In this document: positions 47,713 through 63,815 of the stretch, piece after piece
Layout of the letters: the number at the start of each line of letters is the position of its first letter
Position numbering within the stretch: the first letter of the stretch is position 1
From: a bacterium
Lineage (GTDB): Bacteria > Bacillota > Bacilli > Lactobacillales > Streptococcaceae
Length of the DNA: 64,000 nt
NCBI GenBank assembly: GCA_905221145.1
Contig: CAJNCA010000004.1
Span: forward strand, 1 to 64,000
Reading direction: 5' to 3'
The notes under the pieces: generated by a model
Seen by the model: the letters and a program-made list of their open reading frames with translations, nothing else
Database searches by the model: none
Told to the model about the DNA's origin: nothing
Translations under genes and position numbers: made by a program

Positions 47713-48564
47713 ATGGACAAACCAGATATAGCGACCCTCATTGATTCCCACTTCGAAGAAATGACAGACCTTGAGCAAGAAATCGCTCACTATTTTTTAC
47801 AAACAGAAACCATCCAAGATGACCTTTCCTCCCAGCAGGTCACTCAAAAATTACATATTTCTCAGGCTGCTCTGACCCGCTTTTCTAAAAAGTGTGGTTT
47901 TACAGGTTATCGAGAATTTATTTTCCAATACCAACACCAAGCAGAGAAACAAGACACCCATTCTCACAAACATAGTCCACTGACAAAACGAGTCCTCAGA
48001 AGCTATAGCAATATGCGGGAACAAACACAGGACTTGATTGACGAAGAACAACTAGAACGAATTGCCCAATTAATCGAAGATGCTGAGCGTGTCTACTTCT
48101 TCGGAACAGGTAGTTCTGGCCTTGTCGCCCGTGAAATGAAATTGCGCTTCATGCGTCTGGGTGTGGTCTGCGAGGCCTTGACCGACCAAGACGGTTTTGC
48201 TTGGACGACCAGCATTATGGATGAGAATTGTCTCGTACTCGGTTTCTCCCTTTCTGGCACAACTCCTTCTATTTTAGACAGTTTATTAGATGCCAAGGAG
48301 ATGGGGGCAAAGACTGTACTCTTTTCAAGTGTTCCCAATAAAGATAGCCAGGTCTACACAGAGACTGTTCTTGTAGCCACCCACAGTCAGTCATCCTACA
48401 TCCAACGAATATCCGCTCAACTTCCTATGCTCTTCTTTATCGATTTGATTTATGCCTACTTTTTGGAAATCAATCGTGAAAGCAAGGAGAAAATCTTTAA
48501 TAGCTACTGGGAAAATAAAAAACTCAACGGCTATCGTAGACAAAAACGTATCAGAAAATCCTAG
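47713..48564 (+). CDS. nanR: RpiR-family regulator of sialic acid genes (NanR)
   Basis: 283 residues. The N-terminal RpiR helix-turn-helix (SSQQVTQKLHISQAALTRFS) is followed by a SIS sugar-phosphate-binding domain (about 110-245, with VYFFGTGSSGLVAREM and LGFSLSGTTPSILD). RpiR regulators sense phosphosugars. Its position beside nanK-nanA and, in pneumococcus, a reported activator role in sialic acid induction support NanR. Its last codons and stop lie inside a terminator that is duplicated beyond the neighbouring toxin-antitoxin genes. Its site may be the dyad found at three promoters here. Confidence 0.88.
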   Translation: MDKPDIATLIDSHFEEMTDLEQEIAHYFLQTETIQDDLSSQQVTQKLHISQAALTRFSKKCGFTGYREFIFQYQHQAEKQDTHSHKHSPLTKRVLRSYSNMREQTQDLIDEEQLERIAQLIEDAERVYFFGTGSSGLVAREMKLRFMRLGVVCEALTDQDGFAWTTSIMDENCLVLGFSLSGTTPSILDSLLDAKEMGAKTVLFSSVPNKDSQVYTETVLVATHSQSSYIQRISAQLPMLFFIDLIYAYFLEINRESKEKIFNSYWENKKLNGYRRQKRIRKS

Positions 48565-48625: not shown

Positions 48626-48976
48626 TTAGTCGTATCTTGACTTAGTCTTAAATAATTTCATATAATCACTTTTTGAAGGGAGTAAATAAGCAAGTCTGAC
48701 AGTATCCTCAACAATTGTATATAATACGATGTAATCCTTACTCAAGGTCAATCCTCGCGTTTGATAGTGAGGATCTAATTTCTTACCAAATTTTTCATCG
48801 GCATCAAATCCAGCTTGGGGGAAAATTTCTAGACGATTAATATCTTTTCTAATATTGGCTACTTTTCGTCTCGCAGCCTCTACAGAACCAATTTCCTCCG
48901 CTATATACTGATATATTTTATCCAGACTATCAATTACTCTAGGAGAATACAAAATCCTATATTTTTTATAATCCAT
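48626..48976 (-). CDS. RelE/ParE-family toxin
   Basis: 116 residues. The fold signature is ILYSPRVIDSLDKIYQYIAE then an NIRKDINRLEIFP segment and a C-terminal VLYTIVEDTVRLAYLL strand pair. RelE members cleave mRNA in the ribosome, whereas ParE members poison gyrase. The catalytic residues do not let me decide between the two. Its start overlaps the antitoxin gene end by 11 bp, the usual coupling that keeps antitoxin in excess. The cassette is inserted between nanR and nanK. Confidence 0.85.
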   Translation of the reverse strand: MDYKKYRILYSPRVIDSLDKIYQYIAEEIGSVEAARRKVANIRKDINRLEIFPQAGFDADEKFGKKLDPHYQTRGLTLSKDYIVLYTIVEDTVRLAYLLPSKSDYMKLFKTKSRYD

Positions 48977-49253
48977 AGCGTGTCACGACATCCTCATCTG
49001 TCAAGTAATTTCCAGCCTCAATCTTGGCATAACTTTCTTGAACTTCTGCTTGTAATTGCCTAAATAAATACTCCTTCTCCAATTCCTCTTCACTCAGTAA
49101 ATCTACTTCATTTGTTACGGCAACATTCTTTAAAAATAATCTGAGTGCCGATGAAAGAGAGAGATTTTTTTCTTTTAACACTTCCATTGCATCATTTACT
49201 AATTCTCTATTAGCTTGGAAGGTCACAACTTTACTTGAATTCGCTATAGCCAT
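48966..49253 (-). CDS. RelB/DinJ-family antitoxin
   Basis: 95 residues. The N-terminal ribbon-helix-helix region (VVTFQANRELVNDAMEVLKE then LSLSSALRLFLKNVA) is typical of RelB/DinJ antitoxins, followed by an acidic helical tail (EELEKEYLFRQLQAEVQESY) that would wrap the toxin. It should neutralise the downstream toxin and repress the operon. A dyad over its promoter supports autoregulation. Confidence 0.87.
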   Translation of the reverse strand: MAIANSSKVVTFQANRELVNDAMEVLKEKNLSLSSALRLFLKNVAVTNEVDLLSEEELEKEYLFRQLQAEVQESYAKIEAGNYLTDEDVVTRYGL

Positions 49254-50251: not shown

Positions 50252-51169
50252 TTAGAGGAAGCGCTCCTTGGTTTCACGAATCAATTGAGCAGCTGCTTCT
50301 ACAACTGGACGATCTTCTTCAGTCACTGGTGTCAATGGAGAACGAACAGAACCAATATTCAAACCTTCATTGATTTTCAAGACTTCTTTAATCACACCGT
50401 ACATATTTCCATGTGCAGCAGTGAGTTTGCCAATGATTGCGTTGATAGCGTATTGCAATTCACGCGCTGTTTCCAAGTCTTTATCCGCAATCAATTGGTT
50501 GAGTTTCAAGAAGAGTTCTGGCATAGCCCCATAAGTACCACCGATACCAGCCTTAGCACCCATGAGACGGCCACCTAGGAATTGTTCATCTGGACCGTTA
50601 AAGACAATGTGGTCTTCTCCACCAAGACTGACAAAGGTTTGGATATCCTGAACTGGCATAGAAGAGTTCTTAACGCCGATAACACGTGGATTTTTCAACA
50701 TTTCAGTATAGAGACTTGGAGTCAAAGCAACACCTGCTAACTGAGGAATGTTGTAGATAACGTAGTCTGTGTTTGGAGCTGCAGAACTGATATCGTTCCA
50801 GTATTTAGCAACTGAGTATTCTGGCAGGCGGAAGTAAATCGGTGGAATCGTTGCAATGGCATCTACACCCAAACTTTCTGCGTGGCGAGCAAGTTCCATA
50901 CTATCTTTGGTATTGTTGCAAGCTACGTGAGCAATGATGGTCAATTTACCTTTGGCAACTGCCATGACTTCTTCCAAAATCAACTTACGGTCTTCAACGC
51001 TTTGGTAGATACATTCACCAGAAGAACCATTGACATAAAGACCTTGAACACCTTTATCAATGAAGTATTGAACCAAGGCACGCGTACGCTCTGGACTTAC
51101 TTCTCCTTGATCATCATAACATGCGTAGAAGGCTGGAATGACACCTTCGTATTTTTTTAAATCTGACAT
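50252..51169 (-). CDS. nanA: N-acetylneuraminate lyase
   Basis: 305 residues from the ATG at 51167-51169 (TTAGGAG upstream). The longer frame is not supported. It is a class I aldolase of the DapA fold: carboxylate-binding GSSGE in NGSSGECIYQ, catalytic Tyr in YVIYNIP and Schiff-base Lys in VIGVKNSS. It splits Neu5Ac into ManNAc and pyruvate. The name nanA here means the lyase and not the pneumococcal sialidase of the same name. It has its own promoter with cre-like and dyad elements and is co-transcribed with nanK. Confidence 0.93.
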   Translation of the reverse strand: MSDLKKYEGVIPAFYACYDDQGEVSPERTRALVQYFIDKGVQGLYVNGSSGECIYQSVEDRKLILEEVMAVAKGKLTIIAHVACNNTKDSMELARHAESLGVDAIATIPPIYFRLPEYSVAKYWNDISSAAPNTDYVIYNIPQLAGVALTPSLYTEMLKNPRVIGVKNSSMPVQDIQTFVSLGGEDHIVFNGPDEQFLGGRLMGAKAGIGGTYGAMPELFLKLNQLIADKDLETARELQYAINAIIGKLTAAHGNMYGVIKEVLKINEGLNIGSVRSPLTPVTEEDRPVVEAAAQLIRETKERFL

Positions 51170-51229
51170 AGATTTTCTCCTAAGATTTCTTTTTTTCTGC
51201 CAGAAGCAGAATTTATTCTTTACGTGTTT

Positions 51230-51258
51230 AGTATACACCTTGTGAAAAACGCTTTCAA
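51230..51258 (-). promoter_or_regulatory. nanA lyase promoter with overlapping cre-like site
   Basis: On the minus strand TTGAAA (51253-51258), a 17-bp spacer and TATACT (51230-51235). TTGAAAGCGTTTTTCAC across the -35 resembles a CcpA cre box with one extra base. Confidence 0.75.
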
Positions 51259-51313
51259 CATCTGGTGTACACTTAGATTTTAGTTTCGATATGAATTTTG
51301 AAATGTTTATGGC

Positions 51314-51333
51314 TTGAAAGTAGTTTCAGAAAC
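51314..51333. promoter_or_regulatory. Candidate NanR operator, copy 1
   Basis: TTGAAAGTAGTTTCAGAAAC. The core dyad GAAAGTAGTTTCAG (51316-51329) is centred exactly 67 bp upstream of the -35 centre. A second similar box AGATTTTAGTTTC (51275-51287) lies between. GGCTTG/CAAGCC around it also forms a hairpin that could end the upstream transcript. Confidence 0.6.
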
Positions 51334-51341
51334 AAGCCATC

Positions 51342-51986
51342 CTATTGATATTTTGCAAAAATTTTCTCCATCAATCCAGTCTGGATAAAGACCAATAGTC
51401 CAAATCCAAAAAGCAGGAAGGCTGAACCACCTAAAAGTAGACTGAAGGCTGACAGATAAAGAACCATCACAATGAGGATAAGAATGGCTAACATGAGGAA
51501 GAACCAAGGAAAGTTAAAACTTGCCAAGATCAGCCCTTTTTGTAACACTTCTTTCCAAGTTAAATCATAGCGCGCAGCGATTGGATAGCTAGCCAGCATC
51601 ACGATAGTGAGGAAGATAAGAATCCCTAGACAAATAGCTTTCACCATTTGGAAAGGCATAGCTGTCTGCCCCCAAAAGATATAGAGGTCTAGAAGACTCA
51701 ACAAAACAATGCCCAACTCAAGCAGACCTAGCTGAAGACCTAGTTTCAGATTTTGCTTGAAAGCTCTTAGATAGATTTTAAAGACAGGCACACGTCTACT
51801 CTTCTTAATCTCAAACATGGTCTCGTAGAGGCTGATTTTAGCCACTCCAATCGTTACGATGGGCAAGCAAGAGACAACAAAAAGAAGATTGGCTGTGACG
51901 ATATCCAAGACCTTTTCACTAAAACGCATGAGAAAGTTGTCTGTATCAAATGCTGCCTTGATAAGGCTTACTCCTTTTTGTACCAT
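51342..51986 (-). CDS. YesL-family (DUF624) membrane protein
   Basis: 214 residues from the ATG at 51984-51986, with AGGAGGAG at good spacing. About five membrane spans. The opening FLMRFSEKVLDIVTANLLFV, with its LPIVTIG turn, is the conserved DUF624 start. Such proteins accompany carbohydrate ABC importers across Firmicutes, but their role is unknown. It follows the yhcH/nanQ gene closely, in the sialic acid cluster. Confidence 0.85.
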   Translation of the reverse strand: MVQKGVSLIKAAFDTDNFLMRFSEKVLDIVTANLLFVVSCLPIVTIGVAKISLYETMFEIKKSRRVPVFKIYLRAFKQNLKLGLQLGLLELGIVLLSLLDLYIFWGQTAMPFQMVKAICLGILIFLTIVMLASYPIAARYDLTWKEVLQKGLILASFNFPWFFLMLAILILIVMVLYLSAFSLLLGGSAFLLFGFGLLVFIQTGLMEKIFAKYQ

Positions 51987-52005
51987 ATTTGCTCCTCCTG
52001 ATTTT

Positions 52006-52458
52006 TTAATCAATCAAAATTTTAAAGAGATATTTACGAACCTTCTCTTCCATACCTGCATAGCCATTTGGCTGGTGTGGTTCTCCTGGGAAGAAAATCG
52101 CAAAATTGTGATAACCCAACAAGAGTGGGTAGTCTTCATGACAATGAACAAAGCCAATGTCACTCGCTTCGTCGAATGCTATTGCTTCATCTTTGATACG
52201 TGAACCGTAGCTCGAATATTCATGTCCTTCTACCAGCAAATGCAAGTCTGCATAGTTCTTATGATGCTCAAATTGATCATTTTCAGCTTGATTGAGGACA
52301 TTTTCCTGAACAACTAGAAAGACCTTGTCCCCGTCAATCTCATACTTTCCTAACTCGAAAGAATCTTTACGATGTTGATAGAGATAGTCGATAGCCTTGT
52401 CTAGATTGGGATGAATTCCTTTGTAAAAGGTGATGTTTTTCAAATCGTCAAAAATCAT
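52006..52458 (-). CDS. YhcH/YjgK/YiaL-family protein, probable sialic acid anomerase (NanQ)
   Basis: 150 residues with the DUF386 cupin-like fold. Likely metal ligands are in the QFEHHKNYADLHLLVEGHE and FFPGEPHQPN segments. The E. coli homologue NanQ speeds opening and anomer exchange of Neu5Ac. The location between importer and lyase genes supports that role here. The ATG follows a GAAGGAAAGAG site. Confidence 0.85.
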   Translation of the reverse strand: MIFDDLKNITFYKGIHPNLDKAIDYLYQHRKDSFELGKYEIDGDKVFLVVQENVLNQAENDQFEHHKNYADLHLLVEGHEYSSYGSRIKDEAIAFDEASDIGFVHCHEDYPLLLGYHNFAIFFPGEPHQPNGYAGMEEKVRKYLFKILID

Positions 52459-52629
52459 ACTCTTTCCTTCGTTTCTGATAGTTAACTGAAATCATTCTTA
52501 AGTTGATAAGTGTCTAACAAAACTTCATAAAGTAACTGCATACCCTCCATTTTGTAGACACTTATAACTCTATATTTCCATAGTATGCCAAGACTACTTC
52601 CGCCATCTTGACACACCAGTTTACTTTTC
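52459..52629 (-). other. 171-bp gap with a long bulged hairpin upstream of yhcH
   Basis: 52506-52521 pairs with 52550-52565: sixteen base pairs with one bulge, ATAAGTGTCTA(A)CAAAA against TTTTGTAGACACTTAT, around a loop of about 28 nt. There is no T run. The minus strand includes a 19-codon frame (MQLLYEVLLDTYQLKNDFS) ending in TAA, with GGAGG too close to its ATG, so I do not call it a gene. Confidence 0.5.
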
Positions 52630-53469
52630 TTAACCTTTGACAGCTCCCATAGTAATACCTTGTGTGAAGGATTTTTGGAAGACAAGGAATACTGTTACGA
52701 TTGGCACAGCTGCAAGGGCTGCCCCTGCCATGATCAAACCATAGTTGGTTGCCATTTCGGCCTGCATGGTCGCAACCCCGAGTGAGATAGTCAAGTTGTT
52801 ACGTGAAGTCAACATTACCAACTGCATGAAGTAGTCGTTCCATGTATTGATGAAGGTAAAGATTGCAAGGGCTGCAAATCCTGGTTTCACAATTGGGAAT
52901 GCTACGCTCCAGAAAGTACGAATCTCACCACAACCGTCGATTTTAGCTGATTCAAGCAACTCTGTAGGGATGTTTTCGCTGAATTGTTTCATAAGGAAGA
53001 CACCGAATGGCCATCCAATCAAAGGCAAGATAACTGCCCAAAGAGTGTCATGGATTCCCATGAAGTTGACGATACGTACCAATGGCACAAGGACAACTTG
53101 TTTTGGAAGCGCCATGGCAGCGATGAAGATGGCAAATAGAATACGTTGACCATAGAAACGTTTTTTAGCCAATACATAACCTGCTAGAGAAGAGGTTGCA
53201 CAAACTAAGAACATGGTTACCAATGAGATAAACACAGAGTTCCACATCCACTGCATAGCAGGGTTTTGCACCATGAGTTGTTGGAAGTTTTCCATGGTCG
53301 GCATTTTAGGGAACCATTGTGGCGGAATCATAATGGTATCAGGTTGTGATTTGAAGGCACCTGTCAAAATCCAGTAGAACGGAAAGATGAACAGCACGGT
53401 CAACAAGAGCAAGATAATCGTTGAGATAACAGTGAAAGCTGTTAAGGGTTTCTTTTGTGTAGATTGCAT
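52630..53469 (-). CDS. Sialic acid ABC importer, inner-membrane permease (SatC type)
   Basis: 279 residues with six membrane spans of the CUT1 MalG type. The conserved cytoplasmic EAA-like loop is visible as ELLESAKIDGCGEIRTFWSV and P-rich AFPIVKPGFAALA. It pairs with the preceding permease. No ATPase gene lies here, so the pair probably uses a shared multitask ATPase such as MsmK encoded elsewhere, as in pneumococcus. Confidence 0.9.
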   Translation of the reverse strand: MQSTQKKPLTAFTVISTIILLLLTVLFIFPFYWILTGAFKSQPDTIMIPPQWFPKMPTMENFQQLMVQNPAMQWMWNSVFISLVTMFLVCATSSLAGYVLAKKRFYGQRILFAIFIAAMALPKQVVLVPLVRIVNFMGIHDTLWAVILPLIGWPFGVFLMKQFSENIPTELLESAKIDGCGEIRTFWSVAFPIVKPGFAALAIFTFINTWNDYFMQLVMLTSRNNLTISLGVATMQAEMATNYGLIMAGAALAAVPIVTVFLVFQKSFTQGITMGAVKG

Positions 53470-53484
53470 AGCTGTCTCCTTTCT

Positions 53485-54381
53485 TTAGTATTCTACGTCG
53501 TTTCCAAGTACTTTAAATTGAACAAAGCTTACGATAGCAATCATGACTGCCAAGAAGACACCGATGGTATTTGCATAGCCGTATTCTGTCAATTGGAAGG
53601 CTTTTTCGTAAAGGTAGTACATAAGTGTACTTGTTGAATAGTTTGGACCACCAGATGTCAACAACTGAATCAAGGCGAAACATTGGAATGAGTTAATTGT
53701 TGTAATAATTGCGATGTAAAGAGTTGTTGGAAGAAGGCTTGGCCATTTAATCTTCCAGAAAACTTGCAATTCAGTCGCACCATCAACACGTGCTGCTTCC
53801 ACCAGTGAATTATCAATATTCCCCATGGCCGCGATATAAAGGATAATTGGCTGACCAACAGATGTTGTCAAAAGGATAATCATAATCGCCATCAAAGCCC
53901 AGTTTTTATCTCCCAACCAAGAAATATTTTGGCTGATGATGTGGCTTGACTTAAGGACAAAGTTTAGAATCCCTGATAGTGGGTCATAAATCCATTTCCA
54001 TACAACCGTTACGGCAACACTACCTGTTACAACAGGAAGGAAGAAGACGAAACGGTAGAAAGAACGGGCAATGGCATTTTGATGATATGTCTGAGATGCT
54101 ACAAATAGTGAGAATAGAACAACAACTGGTACAGATCCAATAACCAGAATCACGGTATTGATCAAAGACTTCATAAAGACAGGGTCTTTAAACATGCGAA
54201 TGTAGTTGTCCAAGCCCACAAACTCAAATTTAGTCATTGAGTAGTTAAAGAAACTTGTAATGAATCCCATAATCATAGGAGCCAATACAAAGATGACAAA
54301 GAAAAATAATACTGGTGCTAGGAAAGCGTAGGAAATTACTGTTTCCCGCATACGAATTTTATTGACTTTCACAGTCGGCAC
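53485..54381 (-). CDS. Sialic acid ABC importer, permease (SatB type)
   Basis: 298 residues with six spans of the CUT1 MalF/UgpA type. The EAA loop is SLVEAARVDGATELQVFWKI followed by KWPSLLPTT. The first about 12 residues are polar. Sixteen bp separate it from the second permease gene. It is divided from the binding protein gene by a strong partial terminator. Confidence 0.9.
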   Translation of the reverse strand: MPTVKVNKIRMRETVISYAFLAPVLFFFVIFVLAPMIMGFITSFFNYSMTKFEFVGLDNYIRMFKDPVFMKSLINTVILVIGSVPVVVLFSLFVASQTYHQNAIARSFYRFVFFLPVVTGSVAVTVVWKWIYDPLSGILNFVLKSSHIISQNISWLGDKNWALMAIMIILLTTSVGQPIILYIAAMGNIDNSLVEAARVDGATELQVFWKIKWPSLLPTTLYIAIITTINSFQCFALIQLLTSGGPNYSTSTLMYYLYEKAFQLTEYGYANTIGVFLAVMIAIVSFVQFKVLGNDVEY

Positions 54382-54511
54382 CTCTCTTTCACTAATAGAA
54401 TATTTTGGATTTTATTGAACTGTTTTAAAATCAAAATGAAATTTTTTAAGATTCGCTTATGTAAGAACTTCATTTTAATTTCGTGACAGTTCCTACCATT
54501 TCAAACAAAAT

Positions 54512-54553
54512 CCTCCCTTTTCTTACATAGACTATGCACAGGGAAAAGGGAGG
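54512..54553 (-). terminator. Internal terminator between binding protein and permease genes
   Basis: CCTCCCTTTTC pairs with GAAAAGGGAGG on either side of a GCATAG/CTATG substem, then ATTTTG on the minus strand. Probably partial, allowing more binding protein than permease. The rest of the 191-bp gap is AT-rich without other features. Confidence 0.75.
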
Positions 54554-54572
54554 AGTCAATCTGATTTAGTGC

Positions 54573-55973
<1,401 letters not shown>

Positions 55974-56015
55974 TTATCCGACGCATCCACCACTCTCCTC
56001 TGTTTTTAGATTGTG

Positions 56016-56714
56016 TTATTTGAGACCAGCAACAAATCGTTCTGTAATCTCTTTTGGTCTAGTAATAGCGCCACCGACAACGATACCTCGCACTCCATAT
56101 CCCAGGATTTGTTTGGCTTGTTCAGGTGTATGAATTTTCCCTTCTGCAATGACATCTACACCGGCATCACAGAGTTTTTTGATTAATTCGAAATCGGGAC
56201 CATCCACTTTTGGACTGTAAGATGTATATCCTGATAAGGTTGTTCCGACAAAGTCAATTCCTGCTTCAACAGCTGCTAGTCCTTCTTCAAAAGTACTTGT
56301 ATCAGCCATCAAGAGTTGGTTGGGATATTTCTCCTTAACCTGACGAATGAACTCTTGAATCTCCAAACCATCGTAGCGTTCACGCTTGGTACAATCCAGA
56401 GCAATCACCTCGATGTCGAGTTCTGCCAATTCATCAACTTCTTTCATAGTAGCCGTGATGAAGGGTTCTTGTGGTGGATAATCTCGTTTAATTATCCCAA
56501 TGATTGGAAGTTTTGTAACCTCCTTGATTTCCTTGATATCGCGAACACTGTTTGCTCGGATACCGACTGCTCCACCTTGCTCAGCCGCTTTGACTAGCAA
56601 GGGAATGACTCCTCCCGCTTCTGTATAAAGCGGTTCGTGAGGAAGGGCCTGACAAGAAACGATGATTCCATCTTTAATTTGTGCAATCAAGGCTTCTTTA
56701 GTAATCTGTGGCAT
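56016..56714 (-). CDS. nanE: N-acetylmannosamine-6-phosphate 2-epimerase
   Basis: 232 residues forming a TIM barrel. Conserved segments are [14 protein letters not shown] at the N-terminus, IGIIKRDYP with the catalytic Lys, ALDCTKRER, and the phosphate-binding [14 protein letters not shown]. It converts ManNAc-6-P to GlcNAc-6-P, which NagA/NagB (not here) take into glycolysis. First gene of the operon, with a well-formed promoter. Its ribosome site is AAAGGAGGAAAGAGG. Confidence 0.95.
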
Positions 56715-56748
56715 CCTCTTTCCTCCTTTTCTTTGTTCTTATGGGTTC

Positions 56749-56777
56749 ATTATATATCATCTTTAAAGCGCTTTCAA
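56749..56777 (-). promoter_or_regulatory. nanE promoter with overlapping cre site
   Basis: On the minus strand TTGAAA (56772-56777), a 17-bp spacer and consensus TATAAT (56749-56754). TGAAAGCGCTTTAA (56763-56776) is a cre with one mismatch lying over the -35 and spacer. Confidence 0.82.
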
Positions 56778-56793
56778 TAGTTTGTGGTAGAAT

Positions 56794-56848
56794 AGATTTC
56801 AGTTTCAAAAGTATTTTATAGAACAGCCGTTTCTGAAAGTAGTTTCAG
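56794..56848. promoter_or_regulatory. Candidate NanR operator, copy 2 (two boxes)
   Basis: GAAAGTAGTTTCAG (56835-56848), identical to copy 1 and centred 67 bp upstream of the -35 centre, and AGATTTCAGTTTC (56794-56806), one base different from the second box of copy 1 and at the same distance. Confidence 0.6.
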
Positions 56849-56882
56849 AGCGGGATCTATTTTAAATCATATTTTTAAGACT

Positions 56883-56907
56883 GAAAAAGAGAGCTACTGG
56901 GCTCTCT
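56883..56907 (-). terminator. Terminator of the esterase gene
   Basis: On the minus strand AGAGAGC pairs with GCTCTCT, followed by TTTT. Confidence 0.85.
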
Positions 56908-56913
56908 CATCCA

Positions 56914-57894
56914 TCATTTTACATACTTAAAAGGAATCTCACTACCACATAGCCAGTTGAAGACTTGGTCATTGACAAAAACATTCATGGCTTCATGAGC
57001 ATACTCAGGCATGATACGATAGGCCTTATCACAGGTCAGACGATTATAAATCGCAAACTGGGTAATAGGATAGCAAACATCGTCGTCCAAGCCCGTAATC
57101 ATCTTGACCTCACCTTTGATACGATGGGCAAGATTTTTCACATCGATATAGGCAAGGGTCGCCATAATTTCCTCCTCGGTTTCATGGAAAGGATCGTGAA
57201 ACTTGAAATAACGGAAAAGTTCGTCATAGGCCTCGCTGGTATTCCCAATCTCAAGCACCCGTCTAAAGTCTGACAAGAAGGGATAGATGGCAACTGTTTT
57301 CTGAATCCGAGGATTGAGCGCTGCCGCAACCAAGGCTAGAGCACCACCTTGTGAGGCACCATAGCTAGAAAGCCTTTTCTCATCTACCTGAGGCAGACTA
57401 GCAATAATTTCAACCAACTGGTAAATGTCCAGATAAACATCCTTATAAAAGAGTTTCTCCCGACCTTCCACAGCACCACGGATGATATGCCCTTTCACCG
57501 TATTTCCAAGAGGAGAACGCAAGCCATCTTGTGAGTAACCTGACTGACCCCGCACATCCATGGAAACAACACCGTAACCAGCCACAGTATAGGCCAGCAT
57601 ATCTGCCCAGTCCCAGCCACGTCCCATATAACCATGAAAATGGAAGATTATTGGAACTTTCCCCTCAGTCTTTGGAAGAACGACACGTGCATAAACCTTG
57701 CCTGCATTAGTTCCTTCAAAAGTGATCTCAAAGAACTTGACTTGGGGAATATGGAAATCTCTTTCCTCCAACTGGTAGGCTGGAAGACTGGAAACTTTTT
57801 TCACTTCCTCATCCCAGAAAATATCAAAGTCTTCTGGAACCTCATCCCTTCCTAGATAGGTCTTAATTTCTTCTAATAAAGCTGGATTTTTCAT
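56914..57894 (-). CDS. axe1: Acetyl xylan esterase/cephalosporin-C deacetylase family esterase
   Basis: 326 residues from the ATG at 57892-57894, with AAAAGGAG upstream. The longer frame would run through a cre site. It is a CE7-type alpha/beta-hydrolase: nucleophile Ser in SSYGASQGGALAL, Asp in TGLDDDVC and His in PEYAHEAMN, with the family RGQSGYSQDG motif. No signal peptide, so it acts inside the cell on small acetylated sugars. Its promoter has the same layout as those of nanE and nanA, which suggests it removes acetyl groups from imported sialic acids or related glycans. Confidence 0.88.
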   Translation of the reverse strand: MKNPALLEEIKTYLGRDEVPEDFDIFWDEEVKKVSSLPAYQLEERDFHIPQVKFFEITFEGTNAGKVYARVVLPKTEGKVPIIFHFHGYMGRGWDWADMLAYTVAGYGVVSMDVRGQSGYSQDGLRSPLGNTVKGHIIRGAVEGREKLFYKDVYLDIYQLVEIIASLPQVDEKRLSSYGASQGGALALVAAALNPRIQKTVAIYPFLSDFRRVLEIGNTSEAYDELFRYFKFHDPFHETEEEIMATLAYIDVKNLAHRIKGEVKMITGLDDDVCYPITQFAIYNRLTCDKAYRIMPEYAHEAMNVFVNDQVFNWLCGSEIPFKYVK

Positions 57895-57912
57895 AGCATA
57901 CTCCTTTTGTTT

Positions 57913-57926
57913 TGTAATCGCTATCA
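57913..57926. promoter_or_regulatory. cre site at the esterase promoter
   Basis: TGTAATCGCTATCA matches all fixed positions of TGNAANCGNTNNCA. It lies at the expected transcription start, just downstream of the -10. Confidence 0.8.
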
Positions 57927-57928
57927 CA

Positions 57929-57957
57929 ACTGTAGCATATCTGAGAAATCAATGCAA
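57929..57957 (-). promoter_or_regulatory. Weak esterase promoter
   Basis: On the minus strand TTGCAT (57952-57957), a 17-bp spacer and TACAGT (57929-57934). Both hexamers are poor, as expected of an activator-dependent promoter. The pair was found by applying the geometry of the nanA and nanE promoters. Confidence 0.5.
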
Positions 57958-58014
57958 GGAAGAAGGATAAATAGAAAATGAATTTAGATTTTCTTACTTT
58001 TAGGATTGTGGATT

Positions 58015-58028
58015 GAAAGTAGTTTTAG
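58015..58028. promoter_or_regulatory. Candidate NanR operator, copy 3
   Basis: GAAAGTAGTTTTAG, one base different from copies 1 and 2, followed by AAAC as in copy 1. Centred 67 bp upstream of the -35 proposed above. Confidence 0.55.
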
Positions 58029-58033
58029 AAACG

Positions 58034-58058
58034 AAAAAAGAGCATTTTCGCTCTTTTT
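58034..58058 (-). terminator. Terminator after the 20-codon gene
   Basis: AAAAAGAGC pairs with GCTCTTTTT across a 6-nt loop. Confidence 0.8.
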
Positions 58059-58071
58059 ATCCTATTCAATC

Positions 58072-58134
58072 TTAGTTTTTTGCTTCTTTCTTTTGGAAAG
58101 TGGTTTGGTAATTTACTTTAATCGTTACTGTCAT
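58072..58134 (-). CDS. Putative 20-residue small protein
   Basis: ATG at 58132-58134, ending in TAA at 58072-58074, encoding MTVTIKVNYQTTFQKKEAKN. It is preceded by GAGG (58144-58147) at about 8 bp and followed 14 bp later by a strong intrinsic terminator, so the short frame has all parts of a gene. It is basic at the C-terminal end and has no membrane segment. The peptide could be an independent product or a leader. Conservation would decide. Confidence 0.55.
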   Translation of the reverse strand: MTVTIKVNYQTTFQKKEAKN

Positions 58135-61750: not shown

Positions 61751-62782
61751 TTATTTTGTCAAGGTAGCATAAAACTCTTCTACCAAAGCCTCTGTATTTT
61801 CCCAACCTAGGCAAGGGTCGGTAATAGAACATCCAAAGACCTCTGGTTGGTTTTGACGACCATCTGCTAGGTAAGATTCAATCATAAAGCCTCGAACTGT
61901 CTTTTTGATTTTCTCGTTCCAATCACGATTTTGCAAGGTCTGGCGAACAATTCGAATCTGCTCCATATATTGCTTGCCTGAATTATCATGGTTGGTATCG
62001 ATGAGAATAAAAGGATTTTCAAGTCCCATTGTCTCATAGCGTTCAATAGCATTTAGCAGAGTTTCGTAGTAAAAGTTAGGCTCATTTTTCCCATATTCAT
62101 TGACTGCGCCACGAAGAATAACGTGAGCCAAAGGATTTCCTGAAGTCTCAACTTCTTGGCCATGGAAGAGGAAGGTCTGTTTGTTCTGAGCGGCATAGAT
62201 ACCGTTAAACATAACACCAAGATTTCCAGAGGTTGGATTTTTCATCCCAACCGGTGCATCAATCCCTGAGGCCACAAAGCGGTGCTCTTGGTCTTCCACA
62301 GAACGAGCCCCTACAGCATGGTAGCTGACCAAATCATCTACCAATACCAGATTTGACGGATAAAGCATCTCATCTGCCGTTGTCAAACCAGTCTCTGTAA
62401 TCACGCGATAGTGCAACTGTCGCACAGCCTGCAAGCCATTAATCAGGCTTGGAGCCTTAGAAGTATCTGGCTGGTGTACCAAGCCTTTATAGCCATCTCC
62501 ATTGGTACGTGGTTTAGCAGTATAAACACGCATAACCATGAAAATCTTGTCCGCCACCTTCTTTTGCAAGGCAGATAAACGGCGGGCATATTCCAAGACA
62601 GCCTCTTCATTATCAGACGAGCAAGGACCAATCACCAAAAGGATACGGTCATCTTCCCCTGAAATAATGTCTGCCAATTCTCTGTCACGGCGCTCCTTTA
62701 GGCGCAATGCTTCCGCAGACAATTGGGTTTCTGCCTTGATTGCTTCAATATCGATTTCTTGACCTTTTTCAATAAATGCCAT
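61751..62782 (-). CDS. DAHP synthase (class I), second copy
   Basis: 343 residues. 3-deoxy-D-arabino-heptulosonate 7-phosphate synthase, catalysing the first shikimate step from PEP and erythrose 4-phosphate. Motifs [31 protein letters not shown], metal-site [11 protein letters not shown] and C-terminal SITDPCLGW are intact. It is one of two adjacent paralogues of identical length; pneumococcal annotations call the pair aroF/aroG in varying order. One bp separates the two genes. Confidence 0.94.
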
Positions 62783-62783
62783 C

Positions 62784-63815
62784 TTATTCTCCTAACGTTT
62801 GGTAGATTTCTCTGACAAGGGCTTCCGTATTTTCCCAGCCAAGGCAAGGGTCTGTGATAGACTTGCCAAATACTTCCGGTTCGTTTTGACGGCCGTCTTC
62901 TAGATAAGACTCAATCATAAAGCCACGAACGTACTGCTTGATTTTTTCATTCCAATCACGGTTAATCAAGGTCTGGCGGACAATTCGAATTTGGTCCATA
63001 TATTGCTTACCAGAATTGTCATGATTGGTGTCGACGATGATAAAGGGATTTTCCAAGCCCATTTTCTCATACTGGGCAATGGTATCTATCAAATTATCAT
63101 AGTAATAGTTAGGAATATTCTTACCATACTCATTAATCGCTCCACGAAGAATGGCGTGCGAAAGAGGATTACCAGTTGTTTCCACTTCTTTTCCTAGGAA
63201 AAGGAAGCTTTGTTTGTTTTGAGCAGCATAAATCCCATTAAACATAACATTGAGATTTCCTGAGGTTGGATTTTTAAAACCAGTCGCGAAATCTGCCCCA
63301 CTTGCCACAAAACGGTGTTGTTGGTCTTCAACTGAACGGGCACCAACAGCCATATAAGAAATCAAATCATCTACAAGCGGTAGATTTTCAGGATAAAGCA
63401 TTTCATCAGCTGTTGTCATACCAGTTTCCGTGATGACACGATAGTGAAGATGGCGCACAGCTTTGATCCCGTTGATGAGACTTGGCGCTTCTGCCGCATT
63501 AGGCTGGTGAATCAAGCCCTTATATCCATCCCCGTTGGTACGAGGTTTGGCAGTATAAACACGCATAACCATAAAGATACGGTCTGATACTTCTTCTTGC
63601 AAAGCTGCCAAACGCTTAGCGTACTCAAGGACAGCTTCTTCATTATCAGATGAGCATGGTCCGATTACCAAGAGAATCCGTTGGTCTTCTCCACGTATAA
63701 TGGCTTCTAGCTCTTGATCGCGCTGTGATTTTCTCTCCAAAGCTTGACCTTCCAATTTTGATAAGGCACGAACTTCTTCAATATTAATTTTAGGACTTTT
63801 TGCTGTAAATACCAT
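62784..63815 (-). CDS. DAHP synthase (class I), first copy
   Basis: 343 residues, strongly similar to the following gene throughout, with the same [40 protein letters not shown] and SITDPCLGW segments. The N-terminal 35 residues, where allosteric aromatic amino acids act in this class, differ most (EEVRALSKLEGQALERKSQR here against [20 protein letters not shown]). This suggests the copies differ in feedback sensitivity. AAGGAG precedes the ATG. Confidence 0.94.
   Translation of the reverse strand: MVFTAKSPKINIEEVRALSKLEGQALERKSQRDQELEAIIRGEDQRILLVIGPCSSDNEEAVLEYAKRLAALQEEVSDRIFMVMRVYTAKPRTNGDGYKGLIHQPNAAEAPSLINGIKAVRHLHYRVITETGMTTADEMLYPENLPLVDDLISYMAVGARSVEDQQHRFVASGADFATGFKNPTSGNLNVMFNGIYAAQNKQSFLFLGKEVETTGNPLSHAILRGAINEYGKNIPNYYYDNLIDTIAQYEKMGLENPFIIVDTNHDNSGKQYMDQIRIVRQTLINRDWNEKIKQYVRGFMIESYLEDGRQNEPEVFGKSITDPCLGWENTEALVREIYQTLGE

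What the first reader, a model, noticed from the sequence alone, without database searches (positions are those of the whole stretch)
51230..58028. Three promoters of the sialic acid region share one layout with an undescribed-looking operator at a fixed distance
GAAAGTAGTTTCAG occurs at 51316-51329 and 56835-56848 and with one change at 58015-58028. In each case its centre is 67 bp upstream of the centre of a -35 hexamer: before nanA lyase (TTGAAA-17-TATACT), nanE (TTGAAA-17-TATAAT) and the esterase (TTGCAT-17-TACAGT). The first two also share a second box AGATTTYAGTTTC about 25 bp upstream of the -35, 41-42 bp (four turns) from the first. A cre or cre-like site lies at each promoter. Exact spacing in three unrelated genes argues for one activator, with NanR (RpiR type, same cluster) the obvious candidate.
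Basis: partly seen in the sequence, partly recalled or inferred. Interest (0 to 1): 0.8.

Follow-up and report, generated by a model that had tools for sequence, protein, structure and literature searches.

The report
Known NanR operators, shared promoter layout
The repeated DNA word in front of three sialic-acid genes is the already published binding site of the activator NanR, and comparison of relatives suggests that NanR promoters carry a second, weaker site at a nearly fixed distance.

Summary
GAAAGTAGTTTYAG occurs exactly three times in the window (0 in 100 shuffles), each 67.0 bp centre to centre from a -35 with a 17-bp spacer. The operator is not undescribed: it is the SpNanR site, TCTGAAASTACTTTCARA (quoted in PMC4509764), matched 17, 18 and 16 of 18. 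Preprint PMC12713135 has structures, the effector ManNAc-6-P, the placement, cre and a downstream half-site for nanE and siaA. NanR is the right guess; "undescribed" is wrong.

What I add: among promoters with an operator in 80 relatives plus the window, the second box sits 40 or 41 bp away at nanE (79 of 79), nanA lyase (59 of 60) and presumed sialidase genes (25 of 25), about as conserved as the operator. It is present at the nanA-lyase promoter, where the preprint says it is absent. Box 2 alone occurs 48 times in 20 chosen genomes, 45 times beside an operator. Pairs also precede nan operon-II and an unlinked sialidase. The window's esterase second site is weak. Binding and function were not tested.

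The parts
47713..48564 (+). nanR, RpiR-type activator (HTH_6 + SIS)
   Evidence: Pfam HTH_6 and SIS; full-length match to PDB 8v4v, a SpNanR entry
51313..51330 (-). NanR operator of the nanA-lyase promoter, TCTGAAACTACTTTCAAG
   Evidence: 17 of 18 to TCTGAAASTACTTTCARA; operator present at 59 of 77 relative loci
51274..51289 (-). second site of the nanA-lyase promoter, TCGAAACTAAAATCTA, 40 bp from the operator
51253..51258 (-). -35 TTGAAA (nanA lyase); weak cre-like match 51244-51258 over it
51230..51235 (-). -10 TATACT (nanA lyase)
56832..56849 (-). NanR operator of the nanE promoter, TCTGAAACTACTTTCAGA
   Evidence: 18 of 18 to the published consensus; operator at 78 of 80 relative loci
56793..56808 (-). 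second site of the nanE promoter, TTGAAACTGAAATCTA, 40 bp from the operator
56772..56777 (-). -35 TTGAAA (nanE), cre 56763-56777 over it
56749..56754 (-). -10 TATAAT (nanE)
58012..58029 (-). NanR operator of the esterase promoter, TCTAAAACTACTTTCAAT
   Evidence: 16 of 18; operator at 38 of 47 assessable relative loci
57973..57987 (-). degenerate second site of the esterase promoter, CTAAATTCATTTTCT at operator +41
   Evidence: only 9 of 15 in the window; in 39 esterase promoters the best second match falls at operator +40 in 34
57952..57957 (-). -35 TTGCAT (esterase)
57929..57934 (-). -10 TACAGT (esterase)
57912..57926 (+). cre of the esterase, 0 mismatches
56914..57891 (-). esterase, AXE1 family (axe)
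   Evidence: Pfam AXE1 1.2e-141
56016..56714 (-). nanE, ManNAc-6-P 2-epimerase
   Evidence: NCBIfam PRK01130, 320.8 bits, cutoff 189
50252..51172 (-). nanA, N-acetylneuraminate lyase
   Evidence: best NCBIfam models are N-acetylneuraminate lyase, below their cutoffs

Best explanation
The three sites are NanR operators, orthologous to the published pneumococcal ones. A NanR dimer occupies the strong near-palindrome centred about 98 bp upstream of the predicted start. ManNAc-6-P, made from sialic acid, stabilises the NanR tetramer. The second pair of DNA-binding domains then reaches a weaker site 40 or 41 bp further down, centred near -58, next to where the RNA polymerase alpha-CTD binds, and recruits polymerase. 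CcpA bound at cre over the -35 (nanE, perhaps nanA lyase) or just past the -10 (esterase) would shut the promoters off in glucose. Shown here: sequence, spacing, conservation and co-occurrence. Shown or reported by others for S. pneumoniae: NanR binding to the nanE, nanA-lyase and a cryptic site, effector-driven tetramer formation, NanR-dependent activation of nanE and siaA. Inferred: that all this holds in the window's strain, that the esterase is a target, and that the second site is bound at all.
For: Published consensus matched 17, 18 and 16 of 18. NanR matches the solved SpNanR over its full length. Degenerate operator word in 30 genomes that I chose among those with close NanR: 131 of 132 match rows lie within 26.2 kb of nanR, 1 lies 285 kb away. 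Second box at operator +40 or +41 in 79 of 79 nanE, 59 of 60 nanA-lyase and 25 of 25 presumed-sialidase promoters that have an operator. In the 80 loci the exact pair occurs at gaps 27 (56), 28 (26) and 19 (1) out of 0-119 tested; the reversed box gives none. Pair pattern in 93 of 284 genus genomes, reversed-pattern control 0 of 284. Mean information in unique promoters: nanE operator 1.82 bits, second site 1.66, spacer between them 0.69; nanA lyase 1.90, 1.81, 0.78. Box 2 alone: 48 rows in 20 chosen genomes (reversed control 4), 45 of them the second half of a pair listed; the other 3 show no operator upstream and lie in open reading frames. The pair found by pattern alone led to an unlinked sialidase 456 kb from nanR.
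Against: Promoters of one gene in related species are not independent, so the counts overstate the evidence; the independent part is that several promoter classes share the same offset. Some other stretches are conserved too: box 2 to -35 is 0.86 bits at nanE and 1.27 at nanA lyase, and in presumed-sialidase promoters operator, spacer and second site are 1.55, 1.18 and 1.70. The preprint, citing Afzal 2015, calls the nanA-lyase site non-functional. The right half of box 2 (AAATCTA) fits the operator poorly, so part of it may serve something else. The esterase second site in the window is weak (9 of 15). Operator missing at 18 of 77 nanA-lyase, 9 of 47 esterase and 2 of 80 nanE loci; one of the 2, L101, is a run of N with a pair beyond it. 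The strict pair is absent from 191 of 284 genus genomes, among them many that bear a NanR-like match. No transcription start was mapped.
Confidence: 0.9

Rival explanations
1. The main operator is NanR's, but box 2 is an UP element or the site of a second regulator, not a NanR contact.
For: Box 2 keeps AAATCTA, which does not match the right half of the operator (TACTTTCA); it lies near -58, close to the alpha-CTD zone; box 2 to -35 spacing is as rigid as operator to box 2.
Against: In 20 chosen genomes box 2 is rarely found without a NanR operator (45 of 48 rows beside one), unlike a general UP element. Its left half is GAAAST as in the operator, it is in register at 40 or 41 bp, and it keeps positions G2 and C13 (76-100% in nanE, nanA lyase and presumed sialidase). 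Esterase promoters of relatives keep the other half (ACTTTC) at the same offset.
Confidence: 0.25
2. NanR tetramers bridge operators kilobases apart (looping) and the local second box is secondary.
For: The three operators lie within 7 kb; the preprint discusses looping.
Against: Does not explain a nearly fixed operator-promoter distance or box 2; one sialidase promoter has operator, box 2 and -10 in the same layout 456 kb from nanR.
Confidence: 0.08
3. The repeats are RNA hairpins (terminators or attenuators), not DNA operators.
For: The nanA-lyase and nanE copies fold better than shuffles (z -2.8 and -3.3).
Against: The esterase copy does not fold (0 kcal/mol); two neighbouring hairpins with T runs (56878-56912 and 58030-58066) look like the terminators; the flanking arms differ between sites and species while the core stays.
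Confidence: 0.02

Closest known systems
SpNanR regulon of S. pneumoniae (Afzal 2015, known to me only as quoted in PMC4509764 and PMC12713135; preprint PMC12713135)
   Same: Regulator, 18-bp operator, about 55 bp to the -35, half-site about 23 bp downstream, cre, ManNAc-6-P effector
   Different: Window: esterase directly under an operator with no sialidase behind it (199 bp to nanE); second site present at the nanA-lyase promoter, also in a record named S. pneumoniae; its conserved part is longer than a half-palindrome
Group B Streptococcus NanR site TCTGAAACTACTTTCACG upstream of the nan operon (PMC13343189, passages)
   Same: Same operator word before the nan operon
   Different: Different species; the passages read do not describe a second site
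C. perfringens NanR (PMC4509764, passages)
   Same: RpiR-type regulator of sialic-acid genes; GAAA...TTTC palindrome
   Different: Candidate site GAAAAATATTTTC lies in the regions of the transcription starts
RpiR-family repressors VvNanR, EcMurR, PaRccR (as described in PMC12713135)
   Same: Fold, phosphosugar effectors; two adjacent sites in MurR and VvNanR
   Different: They repress; EcMurR sites overlap the promoter; here the sites lie upstream and activate
E. coli nanS, sialate O-acetyl esterase in a NanR-coregulated operon (PMC3658417, passages)
   Same: An esterase related to Axe is co-regulated with sialic-acid genes; the review also draws Axe in streptococcal nan clusters
   Different: The E. 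coli gene lies in another operon type and species; the passages read give no operator for streptococcal axe

Membership tests
NanR (SpNanR-type) operators | Match to TCTGAAASTACTTTCARA | tested here: met
   17, 18, 16 of 18; consensus seen as a quotation in PMC4509764
NanR (SpNanR-type) operators | Cognate NanR in the same genome | tested here: met
   nanR at 47713-48564, full-length match to PDB 8v4v, a SpNanR entry
NanR (SpNanR-type) operators | DNA-contact residues conserved in the regulator | tested here: met
   T18, L20, S50, A52, T55, R56, K59, Y66, R67 present, read by eye from the ORF
NanR (SpNanR-type) operators | Located about 55 bp upstream of a -35 | tested here: met
   Edge of the 14-mer to -35 is 57 bp in all three
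NanR (SpNanR-type) operators | Half-site about 23 bp downstream | tested here: inconclusive
   Met at nanE and nanA lyase; weak at the window esterase
NanR (SpNanR-type) operators | Binding by NanR and induction by sialic acid | not testable with these tools
   Needs EMSA or footprint and expression data
CcpA-repressed promoters | cre at the promoter | tested here: inconclusive
   0 mismatches at the esterase, 1 at nanE, 2 at nanA lyase; matches with 2 mismatches are common by chance, 177 on the + strand of the window

The most novel reading that the evidence does not exclude
NanR activation runs on a strict two-operator grammar: a strong site near -98 and a degenerate but nearly complete second site near -58, 40 or 41 bp apart. 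It is shared by five promoter classes (nanE, nanA lyase, sialidases including an unlinked one, nan operon-II, axe esterase). The ManNAc-6-P-stabilised tetramer would bridge the pair at every one of them, and the nanA-lyase and operon-II promoters, which the preprint regards as non-functional for NanR, would be live.
Probability: 0.5. Interest if true: 0.55.

Novelty: new member of a known kind. Interest (0 to 1): 0.4.

Why it matters
It settles that the word is the known NanR site. It also gives a sharper sequence rule for NanR-activated promoters, which makes the preprint's tetramer-bridging model directly testable by removing or moving the second site. It adds candidate regulon members (esterase, nan operon-II, an unlinked sialidase) in oral and respiratory streptococci.

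Tried and rejected
Rejected: an undescribed operator (published consensus); an RNA hairpin role; enrichment by count alone (with up to 3 mismatches the word is not clearly enriched in the window; the degenerate word gives 132 rows in 30 genomes against 106 for its reversed control, my sum of the table, so location, not number, carries the evidence). Not resolved: whether the preprint's cryptic site 4 is the axe operator or the operator-like site just behind a long ORF in one genome (L136:11122); its text places it both downstream and upstream of the siaA operon. Afzal 2015 itself was not found in the library; I know its consensus only as quoted. Supplementary files of the preprint could not be looked up, so its Figure 17 and Table 10 were not seen. 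Rows dropped: 3 esterase loci (L065, L068, L073) whose upstream DNA was not in the locus; a yesL query translated out of frame. In one search the esterase -35 picks at offsets 75-76 and 58-64 come from a loose scoring rule or an inserted repeat; one search recounts them. The 25 sialidase promoters are defined by a long ORF between esterase and nanE, an operator of at least 12 of 15 and a TATAAT. Of the ORFs in those loci only L048, L097 and two of L045 were checked by Pfam: L048, L097 and the second L045 ORF are sialidases, the first long L045 ORF is a trypsin-like protease. The five ORFs come from other loci and are all sialidases. nan operon-II was named by ORF sizes and position, not by family search. 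The output was cut in the middle, so L070-L091 were seen only in part there; later calls rest on scripts over all 80 loci.
Full report
The observation. The 14-letter word is present at the three stated places and nowhere else in the window without mismatch. Read on the minus strand, the direction of the genes, it is CTGAAACTACTTTC (nanA lyase, nanE) and CTAAAACTACTTTC (esterase). The -35 hexamer starts 71 nt after the first base of the word in all three, giving 67.0 bp between centres, each with a 17-bp spacer to the -10. The second box is at the same offset at nanA lyase and nanE and is not recognisable as such at the esterase. cre matches are at each promoter, but the nanA-lyase one has two mismatches, a level reached 177 times by the + strand of the window, and the esterase one lies past the -10.

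What it is. The word is the core of the published pneumococcal NanR site. PMC4509764 (passages) quotes the 2015 consensus TCTGAAASTACTTTCARA; the window sites match 17, 18 and 16 of 18. The 2025 preprint PMC12713135 (abstract, sections 3, 7, 13 and 30, and the first parts of sections 9, 10 and 32 read; further passages) gives crystal structures with this DNA, nanomolar binding, ManNAc-6-P as effector that drives dimers to tetramers, operators about 55 bp upstream of the -35 at nanE and siaA, cre over the -35, and a degenerate half-site about 23 bp downstream. The window's NanR aligns over its full length with that protein and keeps the contact residues named there (read by eye). NanR is also listed among Streptococcaceae regulons reconstructed in 2013 (PMC3616900, passages), and a GBS site is printed in PMC13343189 (passages).

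Relatives. I took the 80 loci around nanE that one scan of named genomes returned (best 80 of 200; many S. mitis, oralis, infantis, pseudopneumoniae, cristatus and parasanguinis, one named S. pneumoniae). An operator of at least 12 of 15 precedes nanE in 78 of 80, nanA lyase in 59 of 77 and the esterase in 38 of 47 loci with the upstream DNA. The -35 offset is 70-72 at nanE and 71-72 at nanA lyase with one exception at 63 (L051, with a shorter spacer). In 39 esterase promoters it is 70 in 29, 71 in 3, other in 3, and 4 carry an inserted repeat. So the spacing is tight but not exact.

The second site. Scored over operator +16 to +89 without regard to position, the box TGAAASTNAAATCT is best at +41 or +42 in 79 of 79 nanE, 59 of 60 nanA-lyase and 25 of 25 presumed-sialidase promoters (window counted in the first two). 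That is the operator register moved by 40 or 41 bp. In the 80 loci, exact pairs occur at gap 27 (56), 28 (26) and 19 (1) of gaps 0-119, and the reversed box gives none. In nanE and nanA-lyase promoters its information content is close to that of the operator and more than twice that of the spacer between them. Laid on the operator, it keeps the left half GAAAST and positions 12-13 (TC) of the right half, so both positions equivalent to the Arg56-contacted base pairs named in the preprint are kept in 76-100% of promoters. I read it as a weakened complete site rather than only a half-palindrome; that is inference. The preprint states that the half-palindrome is absent from the nanA-lyase promoter. 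In my sample it is there in 59 of 60 nanA-lyase promoters with an operator, including the record named S. pneumoniae SMRU824 (L064) and L131 at 7930 (that L131 is the same genome is inferred from the equal contig length 232809). The preprint figure was not seen, so a difference of definition or of strain is possible.

Esterase. In the S. pneumoniae genome (L134:5780) and two more (L135, L136) the promoter keeps the operator and TTGCAT-17-TACAGT; in a fourth (L137) a repeat has replaced the -35 region. In 34 of 39 esterase promoters the best second full-site match (10-12 of 15) falls at operator +40. These are orthologues, so the coincidence with the other promoters is about one observation, with a chance that I put at 1 in 20 to 1 in 60. 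In the window it is only 9 of 15, at +41. PMC3509027 (passages and one section) already drew a promoter upstream of this gene as part of the locus. PMC3658417 (passages) draws Axe in streptococcal nan clusters and reports, as unpublished data, that streptococcal nanS homologues are sialate O-acetyl esterases. PMC5352144 (passages) reports axe 2.07-fold up on mucin against glucose and 6.5-fold up in nasopharynx against blood, which fits but does not prove NanR control; it also found no effect of an axe deletion on growth on mucin. The words axe and esterase do not occur in the preprint's main text, and the papers listed by two searches with NanR and axe (15 of 193 listed, 5 of 5) gave me no NanR operator for axe in the passages that I read; most of those papers were not opened. 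Most relatives have a long ORF between esterase and nanE, a sialidase in the three loci checked; the window has 199 bp there, as L056 and L094 have 203.

How specific. In 30 genomes chosen among those with close NanR the degenerate operator gives 132 match rows (87 distinct sites), 131 within 26.2 kb of nanR and one 285 kb away. The strict pair occurs in 93 of 284 Streptococcus genomes and its reversed control in 0 of 284. It is a lower bound: S. parasanguinis promoters, for example, differ by a base from the pattern. Box 2 alone gave 48 rows in 20 genomes chosen among those with pairs, reversed control 4: 45 belong to pairs; the 3 others have no operator upstream and lie in open reading frames. 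One pair in G109 lies 456 kb from nanR (coordinates) and stands 309 bp before a sialidase ORF. Pairs also precede what ORF sizes suggest is nan operon-II in L059, L064, L074, L101, L103, L138 and L139, the last two from genomes G158 and G159, with weaker ones in L054 and L055. The preprint saw only a divergent site past the promoter there and reports the operon as not upregulated on sialic acid. Earlier papers lean the other way: PMC3302838 (passages) says that the units with nanA and nanB appear regulated by this regulator, and PMC3509027 reports 52-fold induction of an operon-II transporter gene during growth on ManNAc, where relief of glucose-type repression may contribute. The relaxed pair search gives 0 hits in 80 shuffled loci against 199 rows in 85 real sources, some of which overlap (L139 and L064) or are the reverse reading of a palindrome.

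Mechanism. I accept the preprint's model with one extension: each promoter class seen here has a second site in register (weak at the window's esterase), so bridging by the tetramer is likely the general rule rather than a feature of two promoters. Placement near -98 and -58 assumes a start 7 bp past the -10, which was not mapped here. Evidence against is given under the best explanation.

Verdict. Observation confirmed; regulator guess right; novelty claim wrong for the operator. What remains new to me, with the reservations above, is the two-site rule across promoter classes, the disagreement about the nanA-lyase promoter, and the candidate targets.

Noticed in passing
58072-58134, minus strand: A 20-codon ORF (MTVTIKVNYQTTFQKKEAKN) between esterase operator and recG; a narrow search found 17 near-identical copies in 14 of 80 relative loci.
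   Followed up: partly
L056, L092, L096, L099, esterase promoters: A repeat that looks like the pneumococcal BOX element (name recalled) sits between operator and -35, putting the operator about 107 bp (L092 about 153 bp) further from the gene.
   Followed up: partly
L104 (S. cristatus DD08) and genome G020: L104 shows no sat, nanA, nanK or nanR match in its 20 kb but keeps operators before esterase and nanE; G020 has a pair but no NanR match.
   Followed up: partly
L136:11122: An exact operator about 110 bp behind a long ORF (980 aa, presumed sialidase), without the promoter layout.
   Followed up: no
L139:6907 and L138:554: NanR-type paired site about 660-670 bp before the first ORF of what looks like nan operon-II.
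   Followed up: partly
48626-49253: Two small overlapping ORFs between nanR and nanK that look like a RelE/ParE toxin with its antitoxin (recalled resemblance, not tested).
   Followed up: no
61751-63815: Two adjacent, similar ORFs of 343 aa that look like paralogous DAHP synthases (recalled).
   Followed up: no
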